DNA of 64,000 nucleotides. Source: Nocardioides marmoriginsengisoli (GTDB lineage Bacteria > Actinomycetota > Actinomycetes > Propionibacteriales > Nocardioidaceae). Under the pieces are notes generated by a model. That model was not told the DNA's origin and did not search any database. It saw only the letters and a list, made by a program, of their open reading frames with translations. The stretch is taken from NCBI RefSeq assembly GCF_003725695.1, contig NZ_RJSE01000009.1, forward strand, positions 62,001 through 126,000, given 5' to 3'. Below, in pieces: positions 11,570 to 49,636 of the stretch. Made by a program: the position numbers and the translations under genes. Every line of letters begins with the position of its first letter. Position 1 is the first letter of the stretch.

Positions 11570-11584
11570 ACTAGAACACGTTCC
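11570..11584 (-). promoter_or_regulatory. Palindromic operator GGAAC-N2-GTTCTAGT upstream of the phosphotransferase operon
   Basis: On the minus strand GGAACGTGTTCTAGT ends eleven bases before the phosphotransferase ATG. It is identical, apart from the two central bases, to the site at 49622-49636 in front of the LLM oxidoreductase gene. The core resembles the KstR-type consensus TnnAACnnGTTnnA known from steroid-catabolism regulators. The adjacent TetR gene is the obvious candidate for the binding protein. Confidence 0.65.
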
Positions 11585-11626
11585 TGCCTGTCAAGGGTTC
11601 CGGAGCCATTTTCTGATGCGCTTCAG

Positions 11627-11632
11627 TATTAT
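11627..11632 (+). promoter_or_regulatory. -10 element TATTAT of the TetR gene
   Basis: TATTAT, close to the consensus -10, is separated by six bases from the ATG at 11639. No Shine-Dalgarno sequence is present, so a leaderless mRNA is likely. Confidence 0.5.
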
Positions 11633-11638
11633 CTCGGC

Positions 11639-12304
11639 ATGGATCTTCCCCAGCAGCGCCGCCGCGGCCGACCGCAACGGATCTCGCGGGAGCAGATCGT
11701 CTCCGCCGCGGTCGCGCTCGGCACCGTGCAGGATCCCGGGGACCTCCGGATGACCGATGTCGCGAAGGCGCTCGACGTCGGCACCGCCGCGCTCTACAAC
11801 CACGTCCGCGACCGCGACGAGCTGCTCGCCCTGGTCGCCGCACGGATCCTCGACGAGACCGAGTACGACGACTTCGAGCCCCCCGAGGGCGCCACCTGGC
11901 AGGAGTGGATCACCGCCTTCGCCCGGGCGACCCGCGCTGCCGTCGTCGCGAACCCGCAGCTGCTCCAGTACGTGCGGCTGACCAGCGCGCCCACCGGCCC
12001 GCGGCTGGACCGGATCGAGCACCTGGCCGCGGTGATGGTCGCCGCCGGCTTCAGCACCGCCGAGGTCCAGCACTGCGTGCAGCACGTCTACACGCTGGCC
12101 CTCGGCGAGGCCTGGCAGCAGGCGCTCGCGGCAGACGGCGAGGACCCGCAGTTCGCCGAGTTCGGCCGGGGCGTCGGCCTGCGCTCGGCCGACCTCCCCC
12201 ACCTGGCGGACATGGTCGCCGCCCGCCCGGACCCGGACGCCCAGTTCACCTTCGCCCTGGACTGCCTGCTCGTCGGCCTGGAGCAACGCCACCCCGCCGA
12301 CTAG
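11639..12304 (+). CDS. TetR/AcrR family transcriptional regulator
   Basis: A 221-residue regulator. The basic arm R-R-R-G-R-P-Q-R is followed by a TetR helix-turn-helix at about residues 35-60 (MTDVAKALDVGTAALYNHVRDRDELL). The C-terminal ligand domain of about 150 residues is all-helical. The gene is divergent from the phosphotransferase/lipocalin pair and probably controls it, and perhaps the 49-53 kb cluster, through the shared GGAAC-N2-GTTC operator. The gene ends at a tandem repeat array and a strong hairpin. Confidence 0.88.
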   Translation: MDLPQQRRRGRPQRISREQIVSAAVALGTVQDPGDLRMTDVAKALDVGTAALYNHVRDRDELLALVAARILDETEYDDFEPPEGATWQEWITAFARATRAAVVANPQLLQYVRLTSAPTGPRLDRIEHLAAVMVAAGFSTAEVQHCVQHVYTLALGEAWQQALAADGEDPQFAEFGRGVGLRSADLPHLADMVAARPDPDAQFTFALDCLLVGLEQRHPAD

Positions 12305-12387
12305 GCCCGTGTATCCGTCGAGTGGGCCCGTGTATCCGTCGAGGGGCCCGTCTGGTTCGTTGACCAGGCCCGTCTGGTCCGTCGAGG
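12304..12387. repeat. Four imperfect tandem copies of a 20-22 base GGCCCGT unit
   Basis: Copies begin at 12304, 12325, 12345 and 12367. The first two share GGCCCGTGTATCCGTCGAG exactly. The third and fourth read GGCCCGTCTGGTTCGTTGA and GGCCCGTCTGGTCCGTCGA. The array lies between the stop of the TetR gene and a strong terminator hairpin, in a convergent junction. I know of no named element with this unit. Confidence 0.7.
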
Positions 12388-12420
12388 TGGAGGTCCCGGC
12401 GCGCGGGACCCCCACCTCGA
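12382..12420. terminator. Bidirectional terminator hairpin
   Basis: The stem pairs TCGAGGTGG (12382-12390) with CCACCTCGA (12412-12420). It continues after one A/C mismatch with GGTCCC (12392-12397) and GGGACC (12405-12410) around a seven-base loop. It lies between the convergent TetR gene and the anti-sigma-like gene ending at 12427. Confidence 0.8.
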
Positions 12421-12426
12421 CCGGGT

Positions 12427-13569
12427 TCAGTTGCCGGGGCAGCCGAGTCCGCTGCGGTACCCGGCCGGCGCCGCGCCGCTGGCGATCCGGTCGGCGTAGC
12501 CCCAGACCACCTCGGGGTAGTCGCCCTCGACGTCCATGTCGCGCAGCACCTTCCAGTCGCGACTGGTCCCCATCGCGTCGACCGCGCGCTGCTGGGCCTC
12601 GGCGTCGCCGGCCGCACGCGCCCGGGTCCACTCGTCCAGCCAGCCGCAGGCGACCGCGCCGGCGACCTTCGCACCGAACTGGTACGGGTCCAGCGCGACC
12701 CCGGTGCCGAGGCCCTTGGTCACGAAGCCGGGAGGCAGCGGTACGCCGTCGAGGACCGTCGCGACGGCGGTGGCCTCGTTGCGCACGGTCACCACCGACG
12801 CCGGCATCGCCTGGAGCCACTCCTTGACACCGACCTTGGCGAGGTCGTTCTGCAGGAAGTCCAGGAACGCCGCGCGATCCCCGAGCCGGCCGCGCAGCTC
12901 CAGGAACACCTTGCCCTCGGGCGGCAGCATCACGGCGTGGTCCCCGGCGGCGTAGCTGACCACCTGGGCGTCCTGCCCGAGCACGTGCTCCTGCCGGACG
13001 TCGTTGCCCTTCTCCGCACGACTCTGCAGGTAGCCGTCGTACTGCGAGGCCGGGTACCAGGAGACGCTGAGCTGCGGGGCCTCGTTGGTACGCGACGAAC
13101 CCGAGGCCAGCTCCTCTTCGACCCACTTGTCCGGCCCGAGCTGGAAGGTCATCTGGCCGGCCGTCGGATCAAAGCCCTCGACGCTGCGCACCTTCCAGCC
13201 GCCCTCGGTCACCAGGATCCGCGGGTTCGCCCGGGCGACCTTGACGACCGCCGCGGCGTACCGGATCGGCGTGACCACCGTCGGGTCGTCGTCGACCGGG
13301 TCGGCGCTGGGAGCCGTGGTGCCGGGACCGGCCGGGTCCGGGTCGTTCGCCACCAGTGTCGGCACCGCCACCAGCGCGGTGACGACGGCTGCGGCCGCGC
13401 CGGCCTGGACCAGCCGGCTGCGCAGCGAGCGCTGCTTCGGACGCCAGTCAGCGAGCCGGGCGTCCGGCGTCACGATGATCTCGTCGAGCAGGGCGAGGTC
13501 GGCACCGGCCAGGTCGGCGACGGCGTCGGCGTCGTACGGGTCGGCCTGCTTCAGGCGGAAGTCGTTCAT
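12427..13569 (-). CDS. Membrane-anchored protein, probable sigma-factor partner (CU044_5270-like)
   Basis: A 380-residue protein. About 60 cytoplasmic residues are rich in Asp and Ala (ADPYDADAVADLAGADLALLDEI), followed by one membrane helix (about 62-80, AGAAAAVVTALVAVPTLV) and an extracytoplasmic domain of about 300 residues with a Pro/Asp/Thr linker. This layout is typical of actinobacterial proteins encoded directly behind ECF sigma factors and thought to act as anti-sigma or sensor proteins. The gene overlaps the sigma gene by ATGA (13566-13569). No zinc-finger motif is visible, so sigma binding is inferred from context only. Confidence 0.65.
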   Translation of the reverse strand: MNDFRLKQADPYDADAVADLAGADLALLDEIIVTPDARLADWRPKQRSLRSRLVQAGAAAAVVTALVAVPTLVANDPDPAGPGTTAPSADPVDDDPTVVTPIRYAAAVVKVARANPRILVTEGGWKVRSVEGFDPTAGQMTFQLGPDKWVEEELASGSSRTNEAPQLSVSWYPASQYDGYLQSRAEKGNDVRQEHVLGQDAQVVSYAAGDHAVMLPPEGKVFLELRGRLGDRAAFLDFLQNDLAKVGVKEWLQAMPASVVTVRNEATAVATVLDGVPLPPGFVTKGLGTGVALDPYQFGAKVAGAVACGWLDEWTRARAAGDAEAQQRAVDAMGTSRDWKVLRDMDVEGDYPEVVWGYADRIASGAAPAGYRSGLGCPGN

Positions 13570-14162
13570 CGGTTCTCCTCGGGGACGAGCACGGGACGGA
13601 CAGAAGCTCTCGGTGTTTCGAGTGCTACATGTCCGGGCGGCCCGGGATCGTCACCGGCAAGAGCTCGCAATCGCGTGCGCGCCCGGGAGAGCCGTTGCCG
13701 CACCGTGGCCGCGGGCAGGCGCAGCACCTCGGCGATCTCACGGGGCTCGAGGCCTTCCCAGACCGTCAGGGTCAGCACCTCGCGATCGAGGTCGGGCAAC
13801 CGCGACAGGGCATCCCGTACGGCGTCCCGCTCGGCGAGCTCGTGGCCGGGATCGGGGAAGGTGGTCTCCGCGAGGCGCTCGCGCAGCCGCTGGCCGAGCC
13901 GATCCCGGCGCCGACCCCCGCGGTGGTGGTTGGCGAGGGCCTTGCGCGCGACGCCGTACAGCCAGAGGCGGCCCTCGTCCCCCGCCGGCAGCGTCGCCCG
14001 GCGGCGCCAGGCGACCAGGAAGGAGTCGGCCACCACGTCCGCCGCGTCGGCGGGTTGCTCGACCCGTCGTACGGCGTAGGCGAGCAGCGCCTCGAAGTGC
14101 GCCGTGTAGAAGGTACGGAACCGGTCTTCGGCGTCGCTGTCGCTACGGGTCACGTCACGCAC
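13566..14162 (-). CDS. ECF-type RNA polymerase sigma factor
   Basis: A 198-residue protein. Region 2 spans about residues 12-80 (FRTFYTAHFEALLAYAVRRV, DAADVVADSFLVAWRR). Region 4 spans about 120-175 (LPDLDREVLTLTVWEGLEPREIAEVLRLPAATVRQRLSRART, given in parts), a standard SigE-like DNA-binding domain. A proline-rich tail follows. AGGAGGA lies just upstream of GTG 14162; a second GTG at 14153 is an alternative start. It is co-transcribed with the membrane-anchored partner downstream. Confidence 0.85.
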   Translation of the reverse strand: MRDVTRSDSDAEDRFRTFYTAHFEALLAYAVRRVEQPADAADVVADSFLVAWRRRATLPAGDEGRLWLYGVARKALANHHRGGRRRDRLGQRLRERLAETTFPDPGHELAERDAVRDALSRLPDLDREVLTLTVWEGLEPREIAEVLRLPAATVRQRLSRARTRLRALAGDDPGPPGHVALETPRASVRPVLVPEENR

Positions 14163-14221
14163 ATGTCCTCCTCGCACCTGATCGTGACAGGCGAGGCGGC
14201 TCGAGTCCCGAGCTAGACGGG

Positions 14222-15640
14222 CTAGAGGATCGCTCCCGGCGAGTACGCCGCGGCAGCAGGATCGGCGGCGACGACCTTCTCGATCTGCCGTACGACGGCC
14301 TGGACCTGCGCGACCGCCGCACCGGTGAACTCGATCGGATCGGCCACCAGGGCCGCGATCTGCTCGCGAGTGAGGCCGAGCCGGGTGTCCGCGGCGAGCC
14401 GGTCGAAGAGGTCGTTGACCGCGAGGCCCTGACGCATTTCCAGCGCGACCCCGACGGCGTGCTCCTTGATCGCCTCGTGCGCCTCCTCGCGGCCGACACC
14501 GTTGCGCACCGCGGTCATCAGCACCTTGGTCGAGGTGAGGAACGGCAGGTAGCGGTCGAGCTCGCGCTGGATCACCGCCGGGAAGGCACCGAATTCGTCG
14601 AGCACGGTCAGGAAGGTCTGGAAGAGGCCGTCGGTGGCGAAGAACGCGTCCGGCAGCGCGACCCGGCGGACCACGGAGCAGGAGACGTCGCCCTCGTTCC
14701 ACTGGTCGCCGGCGAGCTCGCCGACCATCGAGAGCTGCCCGCGCAGGATCACCGCGAGGCCGTTGACCCGCTCGCAGGACCGGGTGTTCATCTTGTGCGG
14801 CATCGCCGAGGAACCGACCTGGCCCTCCTTGAAGCCCTCGGTGACCAGCTCGATGCCGGCCATCAGCCGGATCGTGGTGGCCAGGTTCGAGGGACCGGCG
14901 ACGATCTGCACCAGGGCGGACACGACGTCGAAGTCGAGCGAACGCGGGTAGACCTGACCGACGCTGGTGAGGACGTGCTCGAAGCCGAGGTGCGCTGCTA
15001 CGCGCTGCTCCAGGTCGGCGAGCTTCTCCTCGTCACCGTCGAGCAGGTCGAGCATGTCCTGGGCGGTGCCCATCGGACCCTTGATCCCGCGCAGCGGGTA
15101 GCGCGCGACCAGGTCGTCGAGCCGGGCCAGGGCGACCAGCATCTCGTCGGCGATGGTGGCGAACCGCTTGCCCAGCGTGGTCGCCTGCGCGGCGACGTTG
15201 TGCGACCGGCCGGCCATCACCCGGGCCTCGTGCTCGGTCGCCAGCCGGCCGAGCCGGGCCAGGGTCGCGACGACGCGCTGGCGGACCAGGCCGAGCGACG
15301 CCAGGATCTGCAGCTGCTCGACGTTCTCGGTCAGGTCGCGGGAGGTCATCCCCTTGTGGATGTGCTCGTGCCCCGCGAGCGCCCCGAACTCCTCGATGCG
15401 GGCCTTCACGTCGTGCCGGGTGATCCGCTCCCGAGCCGCGATCGAGTCCAGGTCGACCCGGTCGATCACGGCCTCATAGGCCTCGACGACACCGTCGGGC
15501 ACCTCGATGCCGAGGTCCTTCTGGGCTTTGAGGACGGCGATCCAGAGCTGTCGCTCCAGCACGATCTTGTGCTCGGGGGACCAGATCGCGGCGAGGTCGG
15601 CTCCGGCGTACCGGGTGGCGAGGACGTTGGGGACGGTCAC
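14222..15640 (-). CDS. purB: Adenylosuccinate lyase
   Basis: A 472-residue member of the fumarase/aspartase superfamily. It cleaves SAICAR to AICAR and adenylosuccinate to AMP, so it acts after PurC and after PurA. The signature loop GSSAMPHKMNTRSCERV (about 270-285) carries the catalytic Ser and the MPxKxN motif. GMTSRDLTENVEQLQ and AGRSHNVAAQATTLGKR are the other two conserved regions. Length is normal. The start is GTG 15640, seven bases after a GAGAAT hexamer, without a ribosome binding site. Confidence 0.95.
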   Translation of the reverse strand: MTVPNVLATRYAGADLAAIWSPEHKIVLERQLWIAVLKAQKDLGIEVPDGVVEAYEAVIDRVDLDSIAARERITRHDVKARIEEFGALAGHEHIHKGMTSRDLTENVEQLQILASLGLVRQRVVATLARLGRLATEHEARVMAGRSHNVAAQATTLGKRFATIADEMLVALARLDDLVARYPLRGIKGPMGTAQDMLDLLDGDEEKLADLEQRVAAHLGFEHVLTSVGQVYPRSLDFDVVSALVQIVAGPSNLATTIRLMAGIELVTEGFKEGQVGSSAMPHKMNTRSCERVNGLAVILRGQLSMVGELAGDQWNEGDVSCSVVRRVALPDAFFATDGLFQTFLTVLDEFGAFPAVIQRELDRYLPFLTSTKVLMTAVRNGVGREEAHEAIKEHAVGVALEMRQGLAVNDLFDRLAADTRLGLTREQIAALVADPIEFTGAAVAQVQAVVRQIEKVVAADPAAAAYSPGAIL

Positions 15641-15663
15641 GTCCCTGATTCTCCCACGAGATC

Positions 15664-16209
15664 TCAGCGCAGCAGGTCGCGCAGGTCCAGCTGGACGGTG
15701 CCGTGGTCACCGACGACGACGTCACCTACCGGATCGTCGTCATCGAGGTGGAGGAGCAGGTCCCACCCGCCGTCTCGGTTGACGTAGACATCGAGGGCTC
15801 GCAGGTCGGGGTCGAGCATCCAGTACTGGCCGACGCGACCTTCGGCGTACTCGGCGGACTTGCGGACAGTGTCTTCGGAACGCGTCGACGGCGAAAGCAC
15901 TTCGACGACGAGGACCGGCGCGAGCGTGACCCATTTCTGCTCGGGCCAGCGATCCAGCACCATGAGGTCGGGCGCCCGGAGCCGATTGCGCGGGAGACGC
16001 ACACCCACCTCGGTCACCACGGAGAGGCTAGGAAGGGCGGATCGAAGTACGGAACCCAGTCCCAGCACCGCGTACCCGTGATCGGCCGAGACCGGCGGCG
16101 TCACCACGACCTCGCCATCGACCCACTCAGCCTTGGGCTTCTCGGGGAGATCGAGGTACTCCTCCCACGACATCCGGAACCGCTGCAGCGCAGGCTCGGC
16201 GACCGGCAT
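15664..16209 (-). CDS. Uma2 family (DUF820) restriction-endonuclease-fold protein
   Basis: A 181-residue protein with the PD-(D/E)xK layout of Uma2: WEEYLDLPEKPKAEWVDGEVV near the N-terminus (in parts), then R-A-P-D-L-M-V-L-D, V-L-V-V-E-V-L-S-P-S-T, and a downstream lysine in T-V-R-K-S-A-E-Y. These would supply the metal-binding Asp and Glu and the catalytic Lys. The ATG at 16209 is preferred because GGAGG lies six bases upstream; a longer frame to 16236 is possible. Members occur in many copies in actinobacteria and cyanobacteria, and their biological role is unclear. It sits alone between purB and purD. Confidence 0.8.
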   Translation of the reverse strand: MPVAEPALQRFRMSWEEYLDLPEKPKAEWVDGEVVVTPPVSADHGYAVLGLGSVLRSALPSLSVVTEVGVRLPRNRLRAPDLMVLDRWPEQKWVTLAPVLVVEVLSPSTRSEDTVRKSAEYAEGRVGQYWMLDPDLRALDVYVNRDGGWDLLLHLDDDDPVGDVVVGDHGTVQLDLRDLLR

Positions 16210-16325
16210 GGCAACCTCCCTCGGTACGACAGACACATCCAGGCTCCTCCCATTCTCACCCCGGATCGGGCAAGCGGAAAGTCTGGCAGCGAACGGCGCG
16301 TTCCCGCTCGATCAATCCACAGGCC

Positions 16326-17549
16326 TCAGATGCCGGCAGCGATGTCCGTCCGGTGCTGCGCACCGTCGAACCTGACCGCGGCGACACCGCGGTACGCCTT
16401 GGCCCGGGCGTCGGCGACGTCGTCGCCGACCGCGGTGACCGCCAGCACCCGGCCGCCCGCGGTGACCAGGTCACCGTCGACGAGCGCGGTGCCGGCGTGG
16501 ATCACGTCGCACGGGTTGTCGGAGACGCCGGTGATCACGTCACCGGAGCGCGAGGACTCCGGGTAGCCGGCGCTGGCCATCACCACGGCGACCGCGGCCC
16601 CGGACTTCCACCGCGGCGGCTCGGTCTGGTGCAACGTCCCGTCGGCGGCCGCCTTGAGCAGGACGCCGAGCGGCGAGTCGAGGAGCGCCATCAGCGGCTG
16701 CGTCTCGGGGTCGCCGAAGCGGGCGTTGAACTCGATCACCTTGGTGCCGCGCTTGGTCAGCGCGAGGCCGGCGTACAGGAGTCCGGAGAAGGTCGCGCCG
16801 CGGCGGGCGAGCTCGTCGACGGTCGGTTGCAGCACCCGCTCGAGCACCTCGTCGACGAGACCGTCCGGCGCCCACGGCAGCGGGGTGTACGCACCCATGC
16901 CGCCGGTGTTCGGACCGGCGTCGCCGTCGCCGATCCGCTTGAAGTCCTGGGCCGGCTGCAGCGGGAAGACGGTGGTGCCGTCGGTGATCGCGAACAACGA
17001 GACCTCGGGGCCGTCGAGGAACTCCTCGATCACGACGCGCTCGCAGGCCAGCGCGTGCGCCAGTGCGACCTCGCGGTCCTCGGTGACGACGACGCCCTTG
17101 CCTGCGGCCAGGCCGTCGTCCTTCACCACGTACGGCGCCCCGAACGCGTCCAGTGCCGCTTCGATCTCGTCCTGGGTGGTGCAGACGTGCGCCATCGCGG
17201 TGGGCACCTCGGCCGCGGCCATCACGTCCTTGGCGAACGCCTTCGACCCCTCGAGCTGGGCCGCTTCGGCGGACGGCCCGAAGCAGGAGATGCCGCGCTC
17301 GCGGACCGCGTCGGCGACGCCGGCAACCAGCGGAGCTTCGGGGCCGACAACGACCAGGTCGACGTCGAGGGCGGCGGCGAGGTCGGCCACGGCCGCCGGG
17401 TTCATCGGGTCCACGTCGTGGAGCGTCGCCACGCCGGCGATGCCCGGGTTGCCGGGGGCGGCGTGCACCTCGGTCACCGACGGGTCCCGCGCGAGCGCGA
17501 GGGCGAGGGCGTGCTCGCGGCCACCGGTACCGATCACGAGTGTCTTCAC
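16326..17549 (-). CDS. purD: Phosphoribosylamine-glycine ligase (GAR synthetase)
   Basis: A 407-residue ATP-grasp enzyme that makes glycinamide ribonucleotide, the second step of purine synthesis. The N-terminus KTLVIGTGGREHALALALA is the dinucleotide-like PurD start (shown in part). The ATP-grasp core includes YVVKDDGLAAGKGVVV and FNARFGDPETQ, the latter a PurD signature, and the C-domain shows GRVLAVTAVGDDVADA. GTG 17549 is chosen because the family begins at this K-T-L-V-I-G strand. The open frame to 17573 adds residues that do not belong to the family. Confidence 0.95.
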   Translation of the reverse strand: MKTLVIGTGGREHALALALARDPSVTEVHAAPGNPGIAGVATLHDVDPMNPAAVADLAAALDVDLVVVGPEAPLVAGVADAVRERGISCFGPSAEAAQLEGSKAFAKDVMAAAEVPTAMAHVCTTQDEIEAALDAFGAPYVVKDDGLAAGKGVVVTEDREVALAHALACERVVIEEFLDGPEVSLFAITDGTTVFPLQPAQDFKRIGDGDAGPNTGGMGAYTPLPWAPDGLVDEVLERVLQPTVDELARRGATFSGLLYAGLALTKRGTKVIEFNARFGDPETQPLMALLDSPLGVLLKAAADGTLHQTEPPRWKSGAAVAVVMASAGYPESSRSGDVITGVSDNPCDVIHAGTALVDGDLVTAGGRVLAVTAVGDDVADARAKAYRGVAAVRFDGAQHRTDIAAGI

Positions 17550-17577
17550 GTGCACTGACCTTAGTCGGTGCACGACG

Positions 17578-17615
17578 ACGGGCCGCGCCGGCTACGAACA
17601 CCGGACGCGGCCCGT
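17578..17615. terminator. Terminator hairpin after the alpha/beta hydrolase gene
   Basis: The stem pairs ACGGGCCGCG (17578-17587) with CGCGGCCCGT (17606-17615), and CCGG (17588-17591) with CCGG (17601-17604) beyond a one-base bulge. It lies 20 bases after the stop of the minus-strand hydrolase gene at 17635 and just upstream of purD. Confidence 0.75.
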
Positions 17616-17634
17616 GGGTCGGGTTCACGGCCGA

Positions 17635-18489
17635 TCACTCGGCGGTGACCCCCTGCCGGGCCAGGAAGTCGAGCGCGGTGTCGGCGACCGTCGCCCAGCC
17701 GGAGTCGATGATCAGCGAGTGCCCGACGCCGGGGATCTCGACGATCTCGGTGACGCCGGCGTTCTTGCGCTGCTTCTTGTACGCCGCGTTGGCCATCGCG
17801 AACGGGACGATGTGGTCGTTCTCGCCGGTCACGACGAGCATCGGGCCGCGGTCGGGGTTCTTCTTGTTCGCCTTGGTCTTCGCCCACGGGTTGACGTTGG
17901 CGGTGGCGGCCTGGAACAGCGGGCGGCCGGGGGCCGGGGTGTGCACGGTGTCGTAGAGGTGCCGCGCCTCCTCCTCGCTGACCGCGTTGGCGAACCCGTA
18001 GCGGAACTCGTCGAAGGTCAGCGTCACGGTCCTGGAGTAGTTCAGCGGGTTGCCCAGGACCGGGAAGGCGGCCTTCAGGCTGGAGAACGGCAGCGGCAGC
18101 ACGCCCTTGCTGGGTGCCGGGTCGATGGTGATGGTGGCGGCGGCGATCCCGCGGCCGGCGATGATCTGGACGAGCAGTCCGCCGAAGCTGTGCCCGACGA
18201 CGACCGGCTTGCGGTCGAGACCGGCGATCACGTCGGCGACGTGGTCGGCCACGTCGGCGACCGACGTACCGGCCAGCGAGTCGGCGTTGGCGTGCGCCTC
18301 GGCGAAGGACCCCTGGTCCTCGGGCCAGTCGACGGCGACCGTGCTGTAGCCCTGCGCCTCGAAGTGGTCGCGCCACGGCTTCCAGCTCTCGGCCAGCAGC
18401 CACAGTCCGTGGACGAAGACGACCGGCTGCTTGCCGGACTCGTTGGCGGCGCGTACTTCCTGTGCTTCGCGGGTGGTGATCGTGTTCAT
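17635..18489 (-). CDS. Alpha/beta hydrolase
   Basis: A 284-residue soluble hydrolase. It has the oxyanion strand VVFVHGLW (about 23-30), the nucleophile elbow V-V-G-H-S-F-G-G with Ser101, a later acid in TGENDHIVP, and the catalytic His in PGVGHSLIID. No signal peptide is present. It most resembles esterase/lipase-like hydrolases of cytosolic small molecules. It is transcribed divergently from a TetR gene, with a 20-base palindrome at 18521-18540 between them, so it is probably the target of that repressor. Confidence 0.85.
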   Translation of the reverse strand: MNTITTREAQEVRAANESGKQPVVFVHGLWLLAESWKPWRDHFEAQGYSTVAVDWPEDQGSFAEAHANADSLAGTSVADVADHVADVIAGLDRKPVVVGHSFGGLLVQIIAGRGIAAATITIDPAPSKGVLPLPFSSLKAAFPVLGNPLNYSRTVTLTFDEFRYGFANAVSEEEARHLYDTVHTPAPGRPLFQAATANVNPWAKTKANKKNPDRGPMLVVTGENDHIVPFAMANAAYKKQRKNAGVTEIVEIPGVGHSLIIDSGWATVADTALDFLARQGVTAE

Positions 18490-18520
18490 CGTCGTGCTCC
18501 TTGTCGGTAGTGATGTTGTG

Positions 18521-18540
18521 TAGAAAGAACGTTCGTTCTA
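18521..18540. promoter_or_regulatory. TetR-type operator palindrome
   Basis: TAGAAAGAACGTTCGTTCTA is a 20-base palindrome with one mismatched pair. It lies 32 bases upstream of the hydrolase start and 53 bases upstream of the TetR start. A single site could control both divergent promoters. Confidence 0.75.
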
Positions 18541-18580
18541 CTATGGCTATTCCGAGGACCGGTTGTCAAGGGCCGGCCGC

Positions 18581-18586
18581 TAGTGT
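18581..18586 (+). promoter_or_regulatory. -10 element TAGTGT of the TetR gene
   Basis: TAGTGT is followed by six bases and the GTG start at 18593. This is the same leaderless layout as at many other genes here. Confidence 0.5.
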
Positions 18587-18592
18587 TCTGAG

Positions 18593-21105: not shown

Positions 21106-22488
<1,383 letters not shown>

Positions 22489-22537: not shown

Positions 22538-22544
22538 GTTCGGC

Positions 22545-39401: not shown

Positions 39402-39415
39402 CCCTGCCTCGACGC

Positions 39416-39441: not shown

Positions 39442-39444
39442 TCG

Positions 39445-41639: not shown

Positions 41640-41833
41640 TGTTCCCCGCAATCGTCGCGTTCGGTCCCTTACGAGATAGTCGCTGACACTAACGGCTTGG
41701 AGCAGGTTCAGTCACTGCTCGCCAGCCAACGGACCGATTCGGGGTCCCAATGCGCCGATTTGGTCCGAAAACGGTCCCGGAGCAGCGGAACGGGGCCACC
41801 CCGAGCAGGGCGGAGGAGCCTGGGCCGCGCGCC

Positions 41834-43389: not shown

Positions 43390-43411
43390 CCACCCCTCCT
43401 CTCGGGGTCAT

Positions 43412-43471
43412 CCGGACATCGAGCCTGTCGAGATGCACTTTCGCACCGCGTCTCGACAGGCTCGACGTCCG
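43412..43471. repeat. Intergenic REP-like inverted repeat, CCGGACAT-CGAGCCTGTCGAGA unit
   Basis: CCGGACATCGAGCCTGTCGAGA (43412-43433) is inversely repeated as TCTCGACAGGCTCGACGTCCG (43451-43471) with one mismatch. It lies between dnaJ and grpE inside the operon. The same two arms occur at 52541-52614 in the reverse order. Confidence 0.75.
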
Positions 43472-43472
43472 A

Positions 43473-44069
43473 TCAGTTCTCGTTCTCCGGGTCGACGACC
43501 AGCACCTGCGCTGCTCGCACCACCCGGTCGCCCATCCGGTAGCCGGCCTTGGCGATGTGCTTGGCCGTCGCGACCTCGACCTCGGGGTCCGTGCCGACGT
43601 GCGACAGGGCCTCGTGCAGGGTCGGGTCGAAGGCGTCGCCCGGCTCGCCGAACCGGGTCAGGCCGAGGCCGGCCACGATCCGCTCGAGGTGCTCGGCAAC
43701 GCCCTTGAAACCACCTTCGAGCTCGCCGGCCTCGCGAGCCCGGTCGATGTTGTCGAGCACGTCGAGCATCGGCACCAGCACCGCGAAGACGGCGTTCTCG
43801 CGCACCAGGTCGCGGTCCCGGTCGACCCGGCGCTTGTAGTTGAGGAACTCCGCCTGGAGCCGCTGCAGGTCCGCGGTCCGCTCGGCCGCCTCCTGCTGAG
43901 CAGCCTCGAGCGGGTCCAGGACCACGCCCTCGACGTCGGCGATGTCCTGCGGCTCCAACGGCCCGCCCTCCTCGAGCAGGTTGTCGATGCCGGAGATGTC
44001 GTCGGGGACCTCGACGTGGGGAGCCGGCTCGGCCGGCTCCCCACCCTCGAAGGGGACGTCCGAGGTCAC
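43473..44069 (-). CDS. grpE: Nucleotide exchange factor GrpE
   Basis: A 198-residue co-chaperone that releases ADP from DnaK. An acidic disordered N-terminus (about 60 residues) is followed by the long coiled coil ([25 protein letters not shown], in parts) and the four-helix/beta domain with [20 protein letters not shown] and [19 protein letters not shown] 44069 overlaps the dnaK stop (GTGA at 44066-44069), so translation is coupled. Confidence 0.95.
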
Positions 44070-45925
44070 TTGGACTCGTCCTCGGCGCCCTCGACCGGCT
44101 CGTCCACGATCTCGGCGTCGACGACGTCGTCGTCCTCGCCCGCGGCGTCGGCCGACTCGGCGCTCTCGGCACCCTCGGCCTCGGAGGCCGCGTAGAGAGC
44201 CGCGCCCATCTTCTGGCTCGACTCGCCCAGCTTGGTGATGGCCGCGTTCAGCGCGTCCGCCTCGGCGTTCTCGTCCTCGAGCAGCGCCTTCAGGGCGTCG
44301 ACGTCGGCCTGGACCTCGGTCTTGACCTCCTCGGGCAGCTTCTCGTCGTTCTCGGAGAGGAACTTCTCGGTCGAGTAGACGAGGCTGTCGGCCTGGTTGC
44401 GGACCTCGACGGCCTCGCGACGCTTGGCGTCCTCCTCGGCATACTGCTCGGCGTCGGCCACCATCCGCTGGATGTCGTCCTTCGACAGCGCACTGCCGCC
44501 GGAGATCGTCATCGACTGCTCCTTGCCGGTGCCCTGGTCCTTGGCCGTGACGTGCACGATGCCGTCGGCGTCGATGTCGAACGTGACCTCGACCTTCGGG
44601 ACGCCACGCGGGGCCGGCGGCAGGCCGGTCAGCTCGAAGTTGCCGAGCGCCTGGTTCTGCGCCCACATCTGGCGCTCGCCCTGGGCGACCTTGATCTCCA
44701 CCGACGGCTGGTTGTCGTCGGCGGTGGTGAAGATCTCCGAGCGCTTCGTCGGGATCGTGGTGTTCCGCTCGATCAGGGTGGTCATCACGCCGCCCTTGGT
44801 CTCGATGCCGAGGCTCAGCGGGGTGACGTCGAGGAGCAGCACGTCCTTGACCTCGCCCTTGAGCACGCCGGCCTGGAGCGCGGCGCCGACGGCGACGACC
44901 TCGTCCGGGTTGACGCCCTTGTTGGGCTCCTTGCCGCCGAGCAGCTCCTTGACGACATCGGTGACCGCGGGCATCCGGGTCGAGCCGCCGACGAGGACCA
45001 CGTGGTCGATGTTGGAGACCGCGACGCCGCCGTCCTTGAGGACCTGCTGGAACGGCTTCTTGGTGCGCTCGAGCAGGTCCGAGGTCAGCTTCTGGAACTC
45101 GGCGCGGGTGAGCTTCTCCTCGAAGTGCAGCGGGCCGGACTCGCCGTGGGTGATGTACGGCAGGTGGATGGTGGTCTCGGCCGAGCTGGAGAGCTCGATC
45201 TTGGCCTTCTCCGCGGCCTCCTGGAGTCGCTGCAGGGCGATCTTGTCGGCGGCCAGGTCGACGCCGTTGTTGTCCTTGAACTTCTTGGTCATCCACTCGA
45301 CGACCTTCTGGTCCCAGTCGTCACCACCGAGGTGGTTGTCACCGCTGGTGGCCTTCACCTCGACGACGCCCTCGCCGATCTCGAGCAGGGAGACGTCGAA
45401 CGTGCCGCCACCGAGGTCGAAGACCAGGATCGTCTGGTCGGAGTCGCCCTTGTCCAGGCCGTAGGCGAGCGCCGCGGCGGTCGGCTCGTTGACGATCCGG
45501 CTGACGTTCAGGCCGGCGATCTCGCCGGCCTCCTTGGTCGCCTGGCGCTGCGCGTCGGAGAAGTACGCCGGCACGGTGATCACCGCGTCGGTGACGGTCT
45601 CGCCCAGGTAGGCCTCGGCGTCGCGCTTCAGCTTCTGCAGCACGAAGGCGCTGATCTGCTGCGGCGTGAAGTCCTTGCCGTCGATGTCGACCTTCCAGTC
45701 GGTGCCCATGTGGCGCTTGACCGAGCGGATCGTGCGGTCGACGTTGGTGACCGCCTGACGCTTGGCGACCTCGCCGACGAGGACCTCTCCGGACTTGGCG
45801 AAGGCGACGACAGACGGCGTCGTACGGGCTCCTTCGGCGTTTGCGATGACGGTGGGTTCGCCACCCTCGAGGACCGAGACGACGGAGTTCGTCGTCCCGA
45901 GGTCGATGCCGACCGCACGTGCCAT
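44066..45925 (-). CDS. dnaK: Hsp70 chaperone DnaK
   Basis: A 619-residue Hsp70. The nucleotide-binding domain opens with [19 protein letters not shown] and includes [34 protein letters not shown] and [12 protein letters not shown]. The substrate-binding domain and lid follow, and the acidic C-terminus ends [10 protein letters not shown]. It is the first gene of dnaK-grpE-dnaJ-hspR. A HAIR operator lies about 100 bases upstream and a hairpin in the leader; GGAGG precedes the ATG. Confidence 0.97.
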
Positions 45926-45986
45926 GTTGTTCTACCTCCGTGAGTGGCCCGGGAAGTCCGGGCGCTTTCTTCTGATGAAGTCTGTT

Positions 45987-46005
45987 GCGGACCATGGTGG
46001 TCCGC
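45987..46005 (-). promoter_or_regulatory. Perfect hairpin in the dnaK leader
   Basis: GCGGACCA (45987-45994) pairs with TGGTCCGC (45998-46005) around three bases. It lies between the HAIR operator and the dnaK start on the transcript strand. A second palindrome, CCCGG-N5-CCGGG, lies closer to the start. Structure in the leader may influence heat-shock translation. Confidence 0.35.
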
Positions 46006-46026
46006 GGTGCAGAGTCTGACAAATAA

Positions 46027-46047
46027 CTTGAGTCTGATCAACTCAAC
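46027..46047. promoter_or_regulatory. HAIR operator for HspR upstream of dnaK
   Basis: CTTGAGT-CTGATCA-ACTCAAC differs from the HAIR consensus only in the last base. It lies about 100 bases upstream of the dnaK ATG. The spacer CTGATCA is itself nearly palindromic. Confidence 0.88.
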
Positions 46048-46118
46048 TCTTGTCACAGGGCTCAACGCAGCACCGAGCGCGGATTGTTCCCCGATCCGGC
46101 CACGAACTTCGCGGAGCC

Positions 46119-46616
46119 CTACTCCAGCGAGACCAGCAGCTTGCGCAGCAGACCCGCGAGCTGGTCGCGTTCGGCGACCGTGAGCCCGGCCAGGAGGCGC
46201 TCCTCGTTGGCCCAGTGCCGCGCGACCAGCCGGTCGGTGACCTCGAGGCCCAGCGGCGTCAGCTCGATCAGCCGACCACGGCCGTCGTGCTCGGCGACGC
46301 TCCGGGAGACCAGGCCGGCGGCGACCAGGCGGTCCACCCGCTTGGTCACCGCACCGGAAGTGACCACCATCGTGGCGCTGAGCCCGGTCGCGCTCAGCCG
46401 GTACGGCGCCCCGGCCCGGCGCAGCGAGGCGAGCACGTCGAAGTCGCCGTGACTGAGGCCCTCGGCGGCGAACGGGGGGCGCAGGCCGATGTCGAGCAGG
46501 TCGGCCGCCCGGTGCACCCGGGCCACGACGCCCATCGGGGACGCGTCCAGCTCCGGGCGCTCGACGGCCCACTGGCCGATGATCCGGTCGATGCCGTCCT
46601 GAAGTTCTGCGCTCAT
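46119..46616 (-). CDS. MarR family transcriptional regulator
   Basis: A 165-residue winged-helix protein. It includes GLSHGDFDVLASLRRAGAP, the recognition helix in MVVTSGAVTKRVDRLVAAGLV (in parts), and the wing VAEHDGRGRLIELTPLG. It is divergent from the EamA transporter gene 40 bases away. The palindromes between them (46637-46662) are its likely operator. Confidence 0.87.
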   Translation of the reverse strand: MSAELQDGIDRIIGQWAVERPELDASPMGVVARVHRAADLLDIGLRPPFAAEGLSHGDFDVLASLRRAGAPYRLSATGLSATMVVTSGAVTKRVDRLVAAGLVSRSVAEHDGRGRLIELTPLGLEVTDRLVARHWANEERLLAGLTVAERDQLAGLLRKLLVSLE

Positions 46617-46636
46617 GCCTTGATCTTATCTTCCTC

Positions 46637-46662
46637 GGAAACTATTATTGTTTCCATGGAAA
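46637..46662. promoter_or_regulatory. MarR-type operator overlapping the EamA start codon
   Basis: GGAAAC-TATTATT-GTTTCC (46637-46655) is a perfect palindrome ending one base before the EamA ATG. TTTCCATGGAAA (46651-46662) is a second palindrome that contains the ATG. The three half-sites share GGAAA(C). A bound repressor would block the start of transcription and translation. Confidence 0.7.
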
Positions 46663-47609
46663 CTAAGTCCTCCGGATCGGCCGGCATCGGCACCGTCCTG
46701 CTCACCGCGGTCGCACCGCTGGCCTGGGGCACGACGTACATCGTGACCGAGAACTTCCTGCCCCCGGACCGGCCGCTGTTCGCGGCGACGGTCCGTGCGC
46801 TCCCCGCCGGCCTGATCCTGCTCGCCTTCCGGCGCCAGCTGCCGCACGGCGACTGGTGGTGGAAGGCGATCGTGCTGGGCCTGTGCAACATCGGGCTGTT
46901 CTTCCCGCTGATCTTCCTGGCGGCGTACCACCTGCCCGGCGGGCTGGCCGCCACCCTGCAGGCCACCTCGCCGCTCGCGGTGATGGCGATCGCCTGGCCG
47001 GTGATCGGCGAGCGCCCGCCCGCGATCCGGATCGGAGCCGCCCTGGTCGGCCTCGCCGGAGTCGCCCTGCTGGTGCTGCGCAGCACCGGGAACGTCGACG
47101 CGGTCGGCCTGCTCGCCGCGGCCGGTTCGGTGCTGGTCTCGGCCGTCGGGTTCGTGCTGATCAAGCGCTGGCCGGCTCCGACGACGGCGCACTCCGTCGG
47201 CGGTCGGCCCGACATGCTGACCCTGGTCTCCTGGCAGCTCGTCGTCGGCGGCCTGGCCCTGCTCCCGGTCGGCCTGCTGGTCGAGGGCGCCCCGCCGGCG
47301 CTCGACGGCCGCGCCGTCCTCGGCTTCACCTGGCTCGGCATCGCCGGCACCGCGCTCGCCTACTACTGCTGGTTCCGCGACCTCTCCCGGATGCCGGCCG
47401 GGGCCGCCTCGCTGATCGGACTCGTGAACCCGGTCGTCGGCACCCTGCTCGGCGTGGTCTTCGCGGCGGAGGTGTTCGGGGTGGCTCAGGCATTCGGGAT
47501 GGCCCTGGTGCTCGGCGGCGTGGTCGCCGGCCAGCGGCTCACCCGCCGTACTCCCCCGGTCGCCGTGGCCGTCCGGGAATACCCGGAGCCGCGCCCTTGT
47601 CATGCCTGA
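46656..47609 (+). CDS. EamA-family (DMT superfamily) transporter
   Basis: A 317-residue membrane protein with about ten hydrophobic segments in two EamA repeats, each with the family pattern near the start: PLAWGTTYIVTENFL and GVVFAAEVFG. EamA proteins export amino acids, nucleosides or drugs, mostly untested. ATG 46656 is the only start compatible with the divergent MarR operator. The stop overlaps the aldo/keto reductase start by eight bases, so the two may form an operon. Confidence 0.87.
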   Translation: METKSSGSAGIGTVLLTAVAPLAWGTTYIVTENFLPPDRPLFAATVRALPAGLILLAFRRQLPHGDWWWKAIVLGLCNIGLFFPLIFLAAYHLPGGLAATLQATSPLAVMAIAWPVIGERPPAIRIGAALVGLAGVALLVLRSTGNVDAVGLLAAAGSVLVSAVGFVLIKRWPAPTTAHSVGGRPDMLTLVSWQLVVGGLALLPVGLLVEGAPPALDGRAVLGFTWLGIAGTALAYYCWFRDLSRMPAGAASLIGLVNPVVGTLLGVVFAAEVFGVAQAFGMALVLGGVVAGQRLTRRTPPVAVAVREYPEPRPCHA

Positions 47610-48462
47610 CATGACTTCCATCGACGTCCCGAACCTGACCCTCAACGACGGCAGCACGATCCCGCAGCTCGGGTTCGGGGTCTACCAGGTCCCGCCGGCC
47701 GACACCGCCCAGGTCACCTCCGACGCGTTCGGGGCCGGCTACCGGCACATCGACACCGCGCAGATGTACCGCAACGAGAAGGGTGTCGGCGAGGCGTTCC
47801 GGGCCTCGGGACTGGCCCGCGACGAGGTCTACCTGACCACCAAGCTCAACAACGGCTTCCACCGCCCGGACGACGCCCGCCGCGCCTTCGACCAGTCCCT
47901 GACCGACCTCGGCACCGACCACGTCGACCTGTTCCTGATCCACTGGCCGCTGCCGACGAGGTACGACGGCGACTACGTCTCGACCTGGAACACCCTGATC
48001 GAGTTCGCCGCGGACGGCCGGGCCCGCTCGATCGGCGTCTCCAACTTCCAGGTCGACCACCTGGCCCGGCTCGCCGCCGAGACCTCCGTCGTACCGGCGG
48101 TGAACCAGATCGAGGTGCACCCGTACTTCGGCAACGAGGAGGTCCGCGCTGCCGACGCCGCGGCCGGCATCCTCACCGAGGCCTGGTCGCCGATCGCGCA
48201 GGGCGCCGTCCTCGACGACCCGATCGTCGTCGCGATCGCCGAGCGCCTCGGCCGGACGCCGTCGCAGGTGACGCTGCGCTGGCACGTCCAGCGCGGCGAC
48301 GTCGTCTTCCCCAAGACGCTCTCGCCGGCCCGGATGCGCGAGAACGCGGCGATCTTCGACTTCGAGCTCGGCGCCGACGACCTGGCAGCGATCACCGCCC
48401 TGGACCGGGGCGAGTCCGGCCGCCGGGGACCGAACCCGTCGACCTTCGACTGGATCCCCTGA
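47602..48462 (+). CDS. Aldo/keto reductase
   Basis: A 286-residue NADPH-dependent reductase of the 2,5-diketo-D-gluconate reductase type. The catalytic tetrad is visible: Asp and Tyr in YRHIDTAQMYRNE, Lys in VYLTTKLNNG, His in LFLIHWPLP. LGFGVYQVP opens the barrel, and the NADP site lies in the C-terminal VVFPKTLSPARMRENAAIFDFEL (in parts). It reduces aldehydes or ketones; the substrate is unknown. It overlaps the EamA gene by eight bases; an internal ATG at 47611 is an alternative start. Confidence 0.92.
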   Translation: MPDMTSIDVPNLTLNDGSTIPQLGFGVYQVPPADTAQVTSDAFGAGYRHIDTAQMYRNEKGVGEAFRASGLARDEVYLTTKLNNGFHRPDDARRAFDQSLTDLGTDHVDLFLIHWPLPTRYDGDYVSTWNTLIEFAADGRARSIGVSNFQVDHLARLAAETSVVPAVNQIEVHPYFGNEEVRAADAAAGILTEAWSPIAQGAVLDDPIVVAIAERLGRTPSQVTLRWHVQRGDVVFPKTLSPARMRENAAIFDFELGADDLAAITALDRGESGRRGPNPSTFDWIP

Positions 48463-48480
48463 CCGTCGCCGCGTCGCGGG

Positions 48481-49041
48481 TCAGTCGCCGACGGTGACGG
48501 AGACGGCGTTCGAGGCGGTCTCGGTCTCGGGGTCGAAGACGCGGAACTTGTTGTCGCCCTCGCGACCGGTCAGCACGTAGGTGTCGAACGTCCCGACCGT
48601 CACCTGGACCTGGACGCCGAAGTTGACCCACTCGCCGTCCTCGAACCGCTGCACCAGCAGCGGCACCGCATCGCGGCCGGGCCACTGGCCGGTGAGGTTG
48701 ATCCGCTGCATCGGGTCGACGAAGAGCGGGGACGCGCTCAGCAGGAGCTTCTCGTCACCGGGGCTGCTGGTGAAGCTCGGCTCGGACGGCGACTCGGTCT
48801 CGGTCGGGTCGCTGCTCTGCGTCGGGTCCGGCAGGGCGGTGGTCGGCAGCGCCGACGGCGTGATCGGGTCGACCTGGATCGGCTGGCCGGTGGTGTCGGT
48901 GCTGTCGAGGCCGAGCGCCTTGACCAGGATCCAGGTACCCAGGCCGATCGCCAGGCCGATGGCGAGCGCGACGCCGACGACTTTGACGACGGCAGCGATG
49001 ATCTGCTGCTGTCGGTCCTGGTCCGGTTCGCTCTCGCTCAC
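48481..49041 (-). CDS. Single-pass membrane protein of unknown function
   Basis: A 186-residue protein. A cytoplasmic acidic/Gln start (ESEPDQDRQQQ), one membrane helix (about residues 13-40, GVALAIGLAIGLGTWILV), then a Thr/Pro/Ser linker of about 45 residues and an extracytoplasmic beta-rich domain of about 100 residues ending NAVSVTVGD, like an Ig-type fold. GTG 49041 follows TATCCT by six bases. Confidence 0.68.
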   Translation of the reverse strand: MSESEPDQDRQQQIIAAVVKVVGVALAIGLAIGLGTWILVKALGLDSTDTTGQPIQVDPITPSALPTTALPDPTQSSDPTETESPSEPSFTSSPGDEKLLLSASPLFVDPMQRINLTGQWPGRDAVPLLVQRFEDGEWVNFGVQVQVTVGTFDTYVLTGREGDNKFRVFDPETETASNAVSVTVGD

Positions 49042-49047
49042 GCGCCA

Positions 49048-49053
49048 AGGATA
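49048..49053 (-). promoter_or_regulatory. -10 element TATCCT of the single-pass membrane protein gene
   Basis: TATCCT on the minus strand is followed by TGGCGC and the GTG at 49041. Confidence 0.5.
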
Positions 49054-49102
49054 GGGGCCGGTCAAGCCCGGGGCAGCCGATCGTGGGCCGCCGTCCCCGC
49101 CG

Positions 49103-49540
49103 CTACATCCCGAGCGCTTCGAACCCGCGGCGCCAGAGCACGGTCTCGTGCAGCTTCCGCGAGCGCCAGCCGTCCGCCGTACGGGTGAAGGTGTGCCGGT
49201 AGATCCCGGTCACCTCGACCGGGAACTTCTGCTCGCCGAAGTCGAAGGTCATCGGGTTGTGGAAGTAGGCGTTCGCCTGGATCTCACCGTCCGGCAAGGC
49301 CTCGTAGTCGATCTGCCCGATCATGTGCACCCGGCTCGGCGCCACCGCGAGGTTCTCGATCAGCCAGGGCTTGATCTCGGCGAAGCCGGCCTCGATGCCG
49401 CCGGACTCGACGTAGTTGATCGCCGCGTCCGGGGTGAAGACCCGGTCGAGGCGGTCCCACTCGGCGAGGTCGATCCCGAAGGTGTAGTCGGTGATGGCGT
49501 CGCGGATCGCGGTCCGGTCGAGGATGTCCTGCAGGTCCAT
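49103..49540 (-). CDS. SnoaL-like (NTF2 superfamily) protein
   Basis: A 145-residue protein of the scytalone dehydratase/SnoaL-like group. The cone-shaped fold begins with two helices, RTAIRDAITDYTFGIDLAEWDRLDRVF (in parts), then strands such as IQANAYFHNPMTF and VTGIYRHTFTRTADGWRS. It likely acts on or binds a small hydrophobic ligand. It is divergent from the LLM oxidoreductase gene, and GGAGG precedes the ATG. The shared intergenic operator at 49622-49636 may control both. Confidence 0.8.
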   Translation of the reverse strand: MDLQDILDRTAIRDAITDYTFGIDLAEWDRLDRVFTPDAAINYVESGGIEAGFAEIKPWLIENLAVAPSRVHMIGQIDYEALPDGEIQANAYFHNPMTFDFGEQKFPVEVTGIYRHTFTRTADGWRSRKLHETVLWRRGFEALGM

Positions 49541-49621
49541 CGGGTCCTCCTGAGCGTGCGGATAGAGGCGCCTTCAGAAAAAAGGTGCACTTGGCTACCG
49601 AATCACTCTAGTCCCGAAACT

Positions 49622-49636
49622 GGAACACGTTCTAGT
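49622..49636 (+). promoter_or_regulatory. Palindromic operator GGAAC-N2-GTTCTAGT overlapping the LLM gene promoter
   Basis: GGAACACGTTCTAGT ends eight bases before the LLM oxidoreductase ATG. It overlaps TAGTAT (49633-49638), a -10-like hexamer placed six bases before the start codon. TGGAACACGTTCTA (49621-49634) fits TnnAACnnGTTnnA. It matches the site at 11570-11584 except for the two central bases. Confidence 0.75.

What the first reader, a model, noticed from the sequence alone, without database searches (positions are those of the whole stretch)
11570..49636. One operator, GGAAC-N2-GTTCTAGT, in front of two catabolic-type clusters 38 kb apart
The site at 11570-11584 (minus strand) precedes the phosphotransferase/lipocalin operon. 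The site at 49622-49636 (plus strand) precedes the LLM/DUF1214/SDR operon. They are identical except for the two central bases, point the same way, and end 11 and 8 bases from the start codons. The core resembles the KstR box TnnAACnnGTTnnA. This links the two operons into one probable regulon, with the TetR gene at 11639 as the natural regulator.
Basis: partly seen in the sequence, partly recalled or inferred. Interest (0 to 1): 0.72.

Follow-up and report, generated by a model that had tools for sequence, protein, structure and literature searches.

The report
KstR boxes before two steroid operons
Two matching DNA switches in this actinobacterium are most likely docking sites for KstR, the known master repressor of cholesterol breakdown, and one of them controls a gene pair that looks like a steroid kinase and a phosphosteroid lyase, enzymes studied so far in an anaerobic sterol degrader.

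Summary
In detail: GGAACNNGTTCTAGT occurs exactly twice in the window, 11 and 8 bases before start codons. "One regulon" is supported; the proposed regulator (TetR gene at 11639) is not. Both sites score within the range of published KstR boxes, and the genome has a KstR orthologue on another contig with similar boxes before HsaA, thiolase, EchA19 and other sterol genes. Counting the window's genome, the box precedes operon 1 in 14 of 14 KstR-bearing genomes of the family that have it, 6 of them without any homologue of the window TetR, and operon 2 in 18 of 18. Outside the family the box stands before the operon-1 pair in only 3 of 13 loci. The local TetR has its own candidate operator at 11613-11626. 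Operon 1's proteins match PDB 25-phosphosteroid lyase (E 1.9e-71) and a kinase-like protein that is probably 25-hydroxysteroid kinase. I read operon 1 as a KstR-controlled kinase/lyase tandem for steroid tertiary alcohols. Binding and enzyme activity are untested.

The parts
11570..11587 (-). KstR box 1 (18 bp; plus-strand reading ACTAGAACACGTTCCTGC), in the promoter of the phosphotransferase/Rv3169-family operon
   Evidence: score 21.7; box present in 14 of 14 KstR-bearing genomes of the family that have the operon, the window's included
11589..11594 (-). TTGACA, candidate -35, directly upstream of the box; 18 bp separate it from a weak -10 candidate TTCTGT
   Evidence: read; TTGACA in that place in 12 of the 14 sequences printed (not G015, G020)
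11565..11570 (-). TTCTGT, weak candidate -10, 6 bases before the ATG (leaderless spacing)
   Evidence: read; inference
11613..11626 (.). CTGATGCGCTTCAG, palindrome (12 of 14), candidate operator of the local TetR
   Evidence: CTGAN6TCAG or a variant (6-8 of 8 letters) at +25/+26 from the box in 8 of 8 TetR-bearing genomes; best matches in the 6 others are 4-6 of 8 at varying places
11639..12304 (+). TetR-family regulator (TetR_C_1), divergent from operon 1; not the likely reader of the box
10416..11558 (-). APH-fold phosphotransferase, relative of 3ats (recalled as Rv3168) and of 9fsg (probably 25-hydroxysteroid kinase)
9301..10419 (-). Rv3169-family (DUF7064) protein, homologue of 25-phosphosteroid lyase; overlaps the phosphotransferase gene by 4 bases
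49619..49636 (+). KstR box 2 (ACTGGAACACGTTCTAGT), in the promoter of the LLM/DUF1214/SDR operon
   Evidence: score 31.3; 18 of 18 genomes with the operon, the window's included
49633..49638 (+). TAGTAT, candidate -10 overlapping the right end of the box, 6 bases before the ATG
   Evidence: read; inference
49645..50523 (+). F420-dependent LLM-class oxidoreductase (TIGR03619, Rv2161c family)
50520..51686 (+). DUF1214-type protein (PDB 6ans relative, function unknown); the gene may start at 50511
   Evidence: no Pfam hit at E<=0.001, the name rests on annotated relatives
51683..52525 (+). short-chain dehydrogenase (PRK07890 type)
52637..53794 (+). sulfotransferase-family protein (Sulfotransfer_3)
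53866..54450 (+). AhpD/peroxidase-related-like protein, possibly the end of operon 2
   Evidence: NCBIfam matches below cut-off, no Pfam hit
49103..49540 (-). SnoaL-like protein, divergent from box 2; a homologue lies beside the operon in 17 of 18 genomes

Best explanation
Both sites are operators of KstR, the TetR-family repressor of sterol catabolism, whose gene lies elsewhere in this genome (C14:19758-20369). A KstR dimer at site 1 would cover the spacer between TTGACA and the start region of the phosphotransferase/Rv3169-family operon; at site 2 it would cover the -10 of the LLM/DUF1214/SDR operon. In both cases it blocks RNA polymerase until a steroid-derived ligand releases it. Operon 1 most likely encodes a kinase plus phospho-lyase pair that dehydrates a tertiary alcohol of a steroid (ATP-dependent phosphorylation, then phosphate elimination), as 25-hydroxysteroid kinase and 25-phosphosteroid lyase do in Sterolibacterium. 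Operon 2 encodes redox enzymes of the same sterol regulon, exact step unknown. Shown here: the sites, their match to published KstR boxes, the KstR orthologue, co-occurrence, conservation, homology of the enzymes. Inferred: binding, repression, ligand release and the enzyme reactions. The confidence given is for the KstR part; for the enzyme part taken alone I give about 0.55.
For: Published-site matrix scores 21.7 and 31.3; the sites it was built from score 18.8-33.5. Site 1's odd end (GTTCCTG) is shared by the M. tuberculosis Rv3531c site, positive in EMSA. KstR orthologue: NF033703 272 bits, PDB KstR E 1.2e-58, 51 of 66 identical residues in the DNA-binding end, with a box (18.9) in front. 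Other boxes precede HsaA, a steroid 3-ketoacyl-CoA thiolase, EchA19, an Rv3520c-type reductase, acyl-CoA ligases and a MlaE permease. Box before operon 1 in 14 of 14 KstR-bearing genomes of the family, 6 of them without the window TetR. Box before operon 2 in 18 of 18, and in 0 of 7 distant paralogue loci. Operon 2's DUF1214 gene in 18 of 21 KstR-bearing and 0 of 16 KstR-less genomes of the family. Motif counts per genome in the family: median 17 with KstR, 2.5 without. Lyase homologue E 1.9e-71, RDRSWG aspartate kept.
Against: No binding or expression data. The KstR hit is 8 bits under NCBIfam's curated cut-off. Site 1 breaks the strict consensus at one base. A KstR paralogue (90 bits, C2:918687-919238) has a similar recognition helix and could share the box. 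Outside the family the box stands before the kinase/lyase pair in only 2 of 11 KstR-bearing loci that show both genes, and in none of 4 of genus g25; G109 has the box though no KstR was found in it. Three KstR-bearing relatives have only 2-3 motif places, and some KstR-less genomes of the order have 10-21, for instance G043 with 20 against 4 controls. This genome has a box-bearing P450 beside the thiolase, so C26 oxidation need not pass through a 25-alcohol. The kinase is closer to 3ats than to 9fsg.
Confidence: 0.82

Rival explanations
1. The divergent TetR at 11639 is the regulator of both sites.
For: It is adjacent and divergent, the usual layout for a TetR and its target; a homologue is found in 8 of 58 genomes, all of which have operon 1.
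Against: The box persists before operon 1 in 6 genomes and before operon 2 in 10 genomes without this TetR. Genome-wide the motif is the KstR box. A separate palindrome goes with the TetR.
Confidence: 0.05
2. Operon 1 is doubly controlled: KstR at the box and the local TetR at CTGA-N6-TCAG, so that a sterol signal and a second ligand both matter. This is compatible with the best explanation.
For: Two conserved elements in one intergenic region; in G007 both arms of the second palindrome changed together (ATGA-N6-TCAT).
Against: The palindrome lies nearer the TetR start and may serve only autoregulation. I noticed it by eye before counting, and by letters alone G007 (6 of 8) is no better than G008 and G035 (6 of 8, at other places).
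Confidence: 0.5
3. A KstR paralogue (C2:918687-919238, 90 bits to NF033703), not KstR, reads the boxes.
For: Similar recognition helix, ATLYRYFPSKVHL against GTLYRYFPSKIHL.
Against: No box in the 7 kb around its gene (best score 2.0). G006, G015 and G020 keep the boxes, yet their second-best hits to the KstR model are only 43-52 bits.
Confidence: 0.07
4. The motif is a promoter-like coincidence and not an operator.
For: Its TAGT end overlaps a candidate -10 at site 2.
Against: 57 places against 8 controls; 43 matrix hits against 2 reversed (stretches chosen for the motif); 0 of 43 deep inside called genes; palindromic; counts follow KstR within the family.
Confidence: 0.02

Closest known systems
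KstR regulon of Mycobacterium (Kendall 2007, PMC1995591) and of Nocardioides simplex (PMC7807495, PMC7593942)
   Same: Same 14-18 bp palindrome, box at or beside the -10, KstR orthologue with a box of its own, sterol genes such as HsaA, thiolase and EchA19.
   Different: The two window operons are not named in the passages of those papers that I saw. In g25 genomes (Mycobacterium-like, by inference) 4 of 4 kinase/lyase operons have no box.
25-hydroxysteroid kinase and 25-phosphosteroid lyase of anaerobic sterol degradation (PMC8449060, PMC11061730; PDB 9fzn, 9g2i, 9g4c; 9fsg by inference)
   Same: Both proteins homologous over nearly full length (E 5.9e-75 to 9fsg, 1.9e-71 to the lyase), motif residues kept.
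   Different: Here the two genes form one operon; PMC8449060 (passages) reports no lyase candidate near the kinase gene of Sterolibacterium. Here the genome carries oxygenase-type sterol genes.
Rv3167c-Rv3168-Rv3169 locus of M. tuberculosis (PMC5340868)
   Same: Phosphotransferase and Rv3169-family genes beside a TetR gene, with a palindrome in the gap.
   Different: The window TetR is of another TetR subfamily, and the operon carries a KstR box.

Membership tests
KstR regulon | Operator matches the KstR motif | tested here: met
   Scores 21.7 and 31.3; the published sites used for the matrix score 18.8-33.5. Site 2 meets TnnAACnnGTTnnA; site 1 misses the last base, as the EMSA-positive Rv3531c site does.
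KstR regulon | A KstR orthologue in the genome | tested here: met
   NF033703 272 bits, just under its cut-off of 280; PDB KstR E 1.2e-58.
KstR regulon | The same box before core sterol-catabolism genes and kstR | tested here: met
KstR regulon | KstR binds the sites and represses the genes | not testable with these tools
   Needs EMSA and a kstR deletion.
25-hydroxysteroid kinase | Homology and kinase motif residues | tested here: met
   E 5.9e-75 to 9fsg, whose PDB name does not say 25-HSK. WGD-x-R-x-GN and DWEM present in 21 of the 22 phosphotransferase hits in 23 loci that I chose; the exception is G026, a remote paralogue.
25-hydroxysteroid kinase | ATP-dependent phosphorylation of C25 tertiary alcohols | not testable with these tools
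   No enzyme assay.
25-phosphosteroid lyase | Homology, and the aspartate that reads N in PDB 9g4c | tested here: met
   E 1.9e-71; RDRSWG present in 23 of the 23 loci that I chose. That this aspartate is catalytic is inference.
25-phosphosteroid lyase | Phosphate elimination from a 25-phosphosteroid | not testable with these tools
   No enzyme assay.
Rv3167c-type regulator (window TetR) | Sequence relationship to the TetR divergent from the same operon in Mycobacterium-like genomes | tested here: not met
   No tblastn hit of the window TetR at E<=1e-3 in 4 of 4 g25 loci, which carry another TetR-like frame there. That g25 is Mycobacterium and its TetR is Rv3167c is inference.

The most novel reading that the evidence does not exclude
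Actinobacteria with the oxygen-dependent sterol pathway carry, as one KstR-controlled operon, a kinase/phospho-lyase tandem that removes tertiary hydroxyl groups from steroids by phosphorylation and elimination, chemistry so far studied in an anaerobic sterol degrader. The pair annotated as 'aminoglycoside phosphotransferase' and 'Rv3169 family' would then be steroid enzymes in this and other actinobacterial lineages, with the local regulator swapped between lineages.
Probability: 0.45. Interest if true: 0.75.

Novelty: new member of a known kind. Interest (0 to 1): 0.55.

Why it matters
It places two unassigned operons in the sterol regulon by regulatory and co-occurrence evidence. It also gives a testable function to the pair annotated as aminoglycoside phosphotransferase and Rv3169 family, whose relative in M. 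tuberculosis has a solved kinase structure but, to my knowledge, no known substrate. If the tandem acts on steroids, ATP-driven dehydration of tertiary alcohols is not confined to anaerobes. The case also shows one operon that, within a family, keeps a global operator while its neighbouring local regulator differs or is missing.

Tried and rejected
Local TetR as common regulator: rejected as above. Window TetR as Rv3167c orthologue: rejected. Near matches with 2-3 mismatches in the window: the 2-mismatch hit at 49619 is the other strand of site 2; the rest are not counted as boxes, the next best place by matrix being 58666 at 8.4. L063:5940-6518, tested as a possible KstR, has no PDB or NCBIfam match. 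Two literature searches for the kinase-like PDB entries gave nothing useful. No structure was predicted, since homology was already clear.

Results against generality. A survey of 296 genomes of the phylum listed 52 Rv3169-family matches in 34 genomes. I scored the 29 loci fetched by that call (L186-L214); the other matches were not scored, the window's own being scored elsewhere. Three of 29 have a box of 18 or more (G107, G292, G109), which is 3 of the 13 that also show the phosphotransferase, and 2 of the 11 of those 13 whose genome has KstR at E<=1e-45. G109 (82% complete) has the box although no KstR was found in it. A second Rv3169-family copy in G012 has neither the phosphotransferase nor a box in front.

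Limits of the counts. The 43 matrix hits come from 52 stretches plus the window (480,344 of 4,457,833 bases), nearly all chosen for motif hits, so they are a lower bound and their control is biased; at least two (ATTTGAAC type) are probably another regulator's. Searches are the unbiased counts. One search printed only part of its 57 places. The matrix was not cross-validated. Related genomes are not independent, and the Fisher and rank tests do not correct for that. KstR-bearing means a best hit of at least 190 bits; the next best genome has 63 bits, and 1 of 58 passes the curated cut-off. Gene starts come from my own simple caller.
Full report
The observation. In the whole genome (G000, 4,457,833 bases, 16 contigs; the window is C4:62001-126000) the 15-mer occurs 6 times and its reversed control 0 times. 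The start codon of the phosphotransferase gene is backed by the seven other TetR-bearing genomes, which keep an ATG at the same distance from the box.

What the sites are. Table 3 of Kendall 2007 (PMC1995591; section 10 read in full, other passages) lists 47 operators. A palindromic matrix from their first 18 bases scores site 2 at 31.3 and site 1 at 21.7. The published sites themselves score 18.8-33.5, the next best place in the window 8.4, and the reversed window at most 9.2. Site 1 ends in GTTCCTG in place of GTTCTAG, and so does the Rv3531c site, which that table marks positive in EMSA. TNNAACNNGTTNNA occurs at 57 places in the genome against 8 for the reversed pattern. In the 52 stretches I took plus the window there are 43 places scoring at least 18 (2 in the reversed control). 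Of these 43, 36 lie within 60 bases of a called gene start and 0 deep inside a gene; 80% of random places are deep inside genes.

The regulator. NF033703 (KstR) hits C14:19794-20363 with 272 bits, 8 under the curated cut-off. The best PDB match is KstR itself (5cw8, E 1.2e-58), with 51 of 66 identical residues in the DNA-binding end. A box (18.9) lies 111 bases before this gene as I called it. Further boxes precede genes for HsaA (626 bits), EchA19 (424 bits), a steroid 3-ketoacyl-CoA thiolase (652 bits) with a divergent P450, an Rv3520c-type reductase, acyl-CoA ligases, a MlaE permease and a GMC oxidoreductase. The genome thus looks like that of a sterol degrader; the nearest named records are Marmoricola and Nocardioides. 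KstR boxes and regulons have been described in Nocardioides simplex, 27 induced operons being given as 38% of the putative KstR-regulated ones (PMC7807495 and PMC7593942, passages only).

Test between KstR and the neighbouring TetR. I searched 58 relatives for KstR, the Rv3169 family, the window TetR and the DUF1214 protein. In the window's family (37 genomes, the window's included) 21 have KstR at 190 bits or more and 16 do not. The Rv3169-family gene is in 14 of 21 and 1 of 16 (Fisher p 2.2e-4). The DUF1214 gene is in 18 of 21 and 0 of 16 (p 8.7e-8) (relatedness not corrected). The box stands before the phosphotransferase in 14 of 14 KstR-bearing genomes (21.7-30.7; second-best place in each 4-kb locus at most 9.0). 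It is absent in G026, the one without KstR, where the pair is also arranged differently. Six of the 14 (G006, G008, G015, G020, G028, G035) have no homologue of the window TetR at E<=1e-20 in the whole genome. The box stands before the LLM gene in 18 of 18 (21.9-31.3); the SDR gene is seen in 17 of these 18 loci (not G020). Seven distant DUF1214 paralogue loci have no box (best 5.8). Counts of TNGAACNNGTTCNA per genome in the family have median 17 with KstR and 2.5 without (Mann-Whitney p 9.8e-6). The counts are not uniform: G005, G013 and G022 have KstR but only 2-3 places, G030 has 10 without KstR, and larger genomes of the order without KstR reach 20 or 21 (G043: 20, control 4; G046: 21, control 27).

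The local TetR. In the TetR-phosphotransferase gap of the 8 TetR-bearing genomes a second element stands 25-26 bases beyond the box: CTGA-N6-TCAG or a near variant (6-8 of 8 letters), with both arms changed together in G007. In the 6 genomes without the TetR the best matches are 4-6 of 8 at varying places. I noticed this element by eye before counting. It is the best candidate for the TetR's own operator. In 4 of 4 g25 genomes, which I take to be Mycobacterium, the same operon has another TetR-like frame beside it and no KstR box; in 2 of 2 g26 genomes the box is there. In M. tuberculosis Rv3167c is reported to repress Rv3168-Rv3169 and to bind a palindrome in that gap (PMC5340868, section 7 read in full, passages).

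What the operons do. The phosphotransferase (380 aa) matches 3ats (E 1.4e-131; the PDB name is only 'putative uncharacterized protein', that it is Rv3168 is recalled) and the kinase-like protein 9fsg/9ft5/9fu5 (E 5.9e-75). The Rv3169-family protein matches 25-phosphosteroid lyase (9fzn/9g2i E 1.9e-71; 9g4c E 8.3e-71). In the aligned stretch 9g4c shows N for D in RDRSWG; the window protein and 22 of 22 other loci that I chose have D. That 9fsg is 25-hydroxysteroid kinase is my inference from its neighbouring PDB codes and its homology. 25-HSK phosphorylates tertiary C25 alcohols of steroids, and a lyase then removes phosphate (PMC8449060, abstract and passages; PMC11061730, passages). PMC8449060 already notes similarity to actinobacterial phosphotransferases (up to 46% identity); Rv3168 is not named in its main text. 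So operon 1 is best read as a steroid kinase/phospho-lyase tandem. What it acts on in an organism with the P450 route is open: 25-hydroxysterols, branched phytosterol intermediates or another tertiary alcohol. Operon 2 (F420-dependent LLM, DUF1214, SDR, sulfotransferase-like, AhpD-like) has no assigned step. Its restriction to KstR-bearing genomes of the family argues for a sterol role.

How repression would work. At site 1 the box lies in the 18 bases between TTGACA (11594-11589) and a weak TTCTGT, touching the latter by one base. At site 2 its end overlaps TAGTAT (49633-49638), 6 bases before the ATG, as in a leaderless promoter. Either position blocks polymerase, as Kendall 2007 proposed for the kstR promoter. 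The -35 and -10 calls are by eye; TTGACA beside the box is kept in 12 of 14 genomes. Release by a sterol-derived CoA thioester is recalled knowledge of KstR, not from a call.

In print. In the held library I found no paper joining KstR with DUF1214 or with sulfotransferase, luciferase-like and steroid together, and one unrelated cloning paper for KstR with aminoglycoside phosphotransferase. The main texts of the two Nocardioides papers hold none of the terms luciferase, DUF, sulfotransferase, lipocalin or aminoglycoside. Their supplementary tables were not readable here, so either operon may be listed there.

Noticed in passing
window 54453-55352 (+): Directly after the AhpD-like gene lies an ECF sigma-factor-like gene whose C-terminal part looks SnoaL-like; this resembles the ECF41 type often found beside such genes (recalled, not tested).
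   Followed up: no
L149 (G026:C41) and L150 (G012:C6): Rv3169-family genes outside the kinase operon, without a box in front; in G026, which lacks KstR, the nearest phosphotransferase is only 25% identical.
   Followed up: partly
L147 (G028:C15) near 4447: Here a KstR box and a divergent frame that starts like the TetR of g25 genomes stand at the same operon, so different local regulators appear to have been recruited to it.
   Followed up: partly
L169 (G028:C10) 564 and 3594: In this genome the SDR gene has a second KstR box (29.8) of its own, besides the one before the LLM gene (27.5).
   Followed up: no
G000:C4:399784 and 435524 (L105, L106): A different palindrome, ATTTGAACRTGTTCAAAT, passes the matrix threshold beside other genes (one a TetR-type regulator) and is probably another regulator's operator.
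   Followed up: no
L223 (G000:C2:918687-919238): KstR paralogue (90 bits) with a similar recognition helix; hits of similar score (85-106 bits) occur in 11 other relatives, all with KstR.
   Followed up: partly
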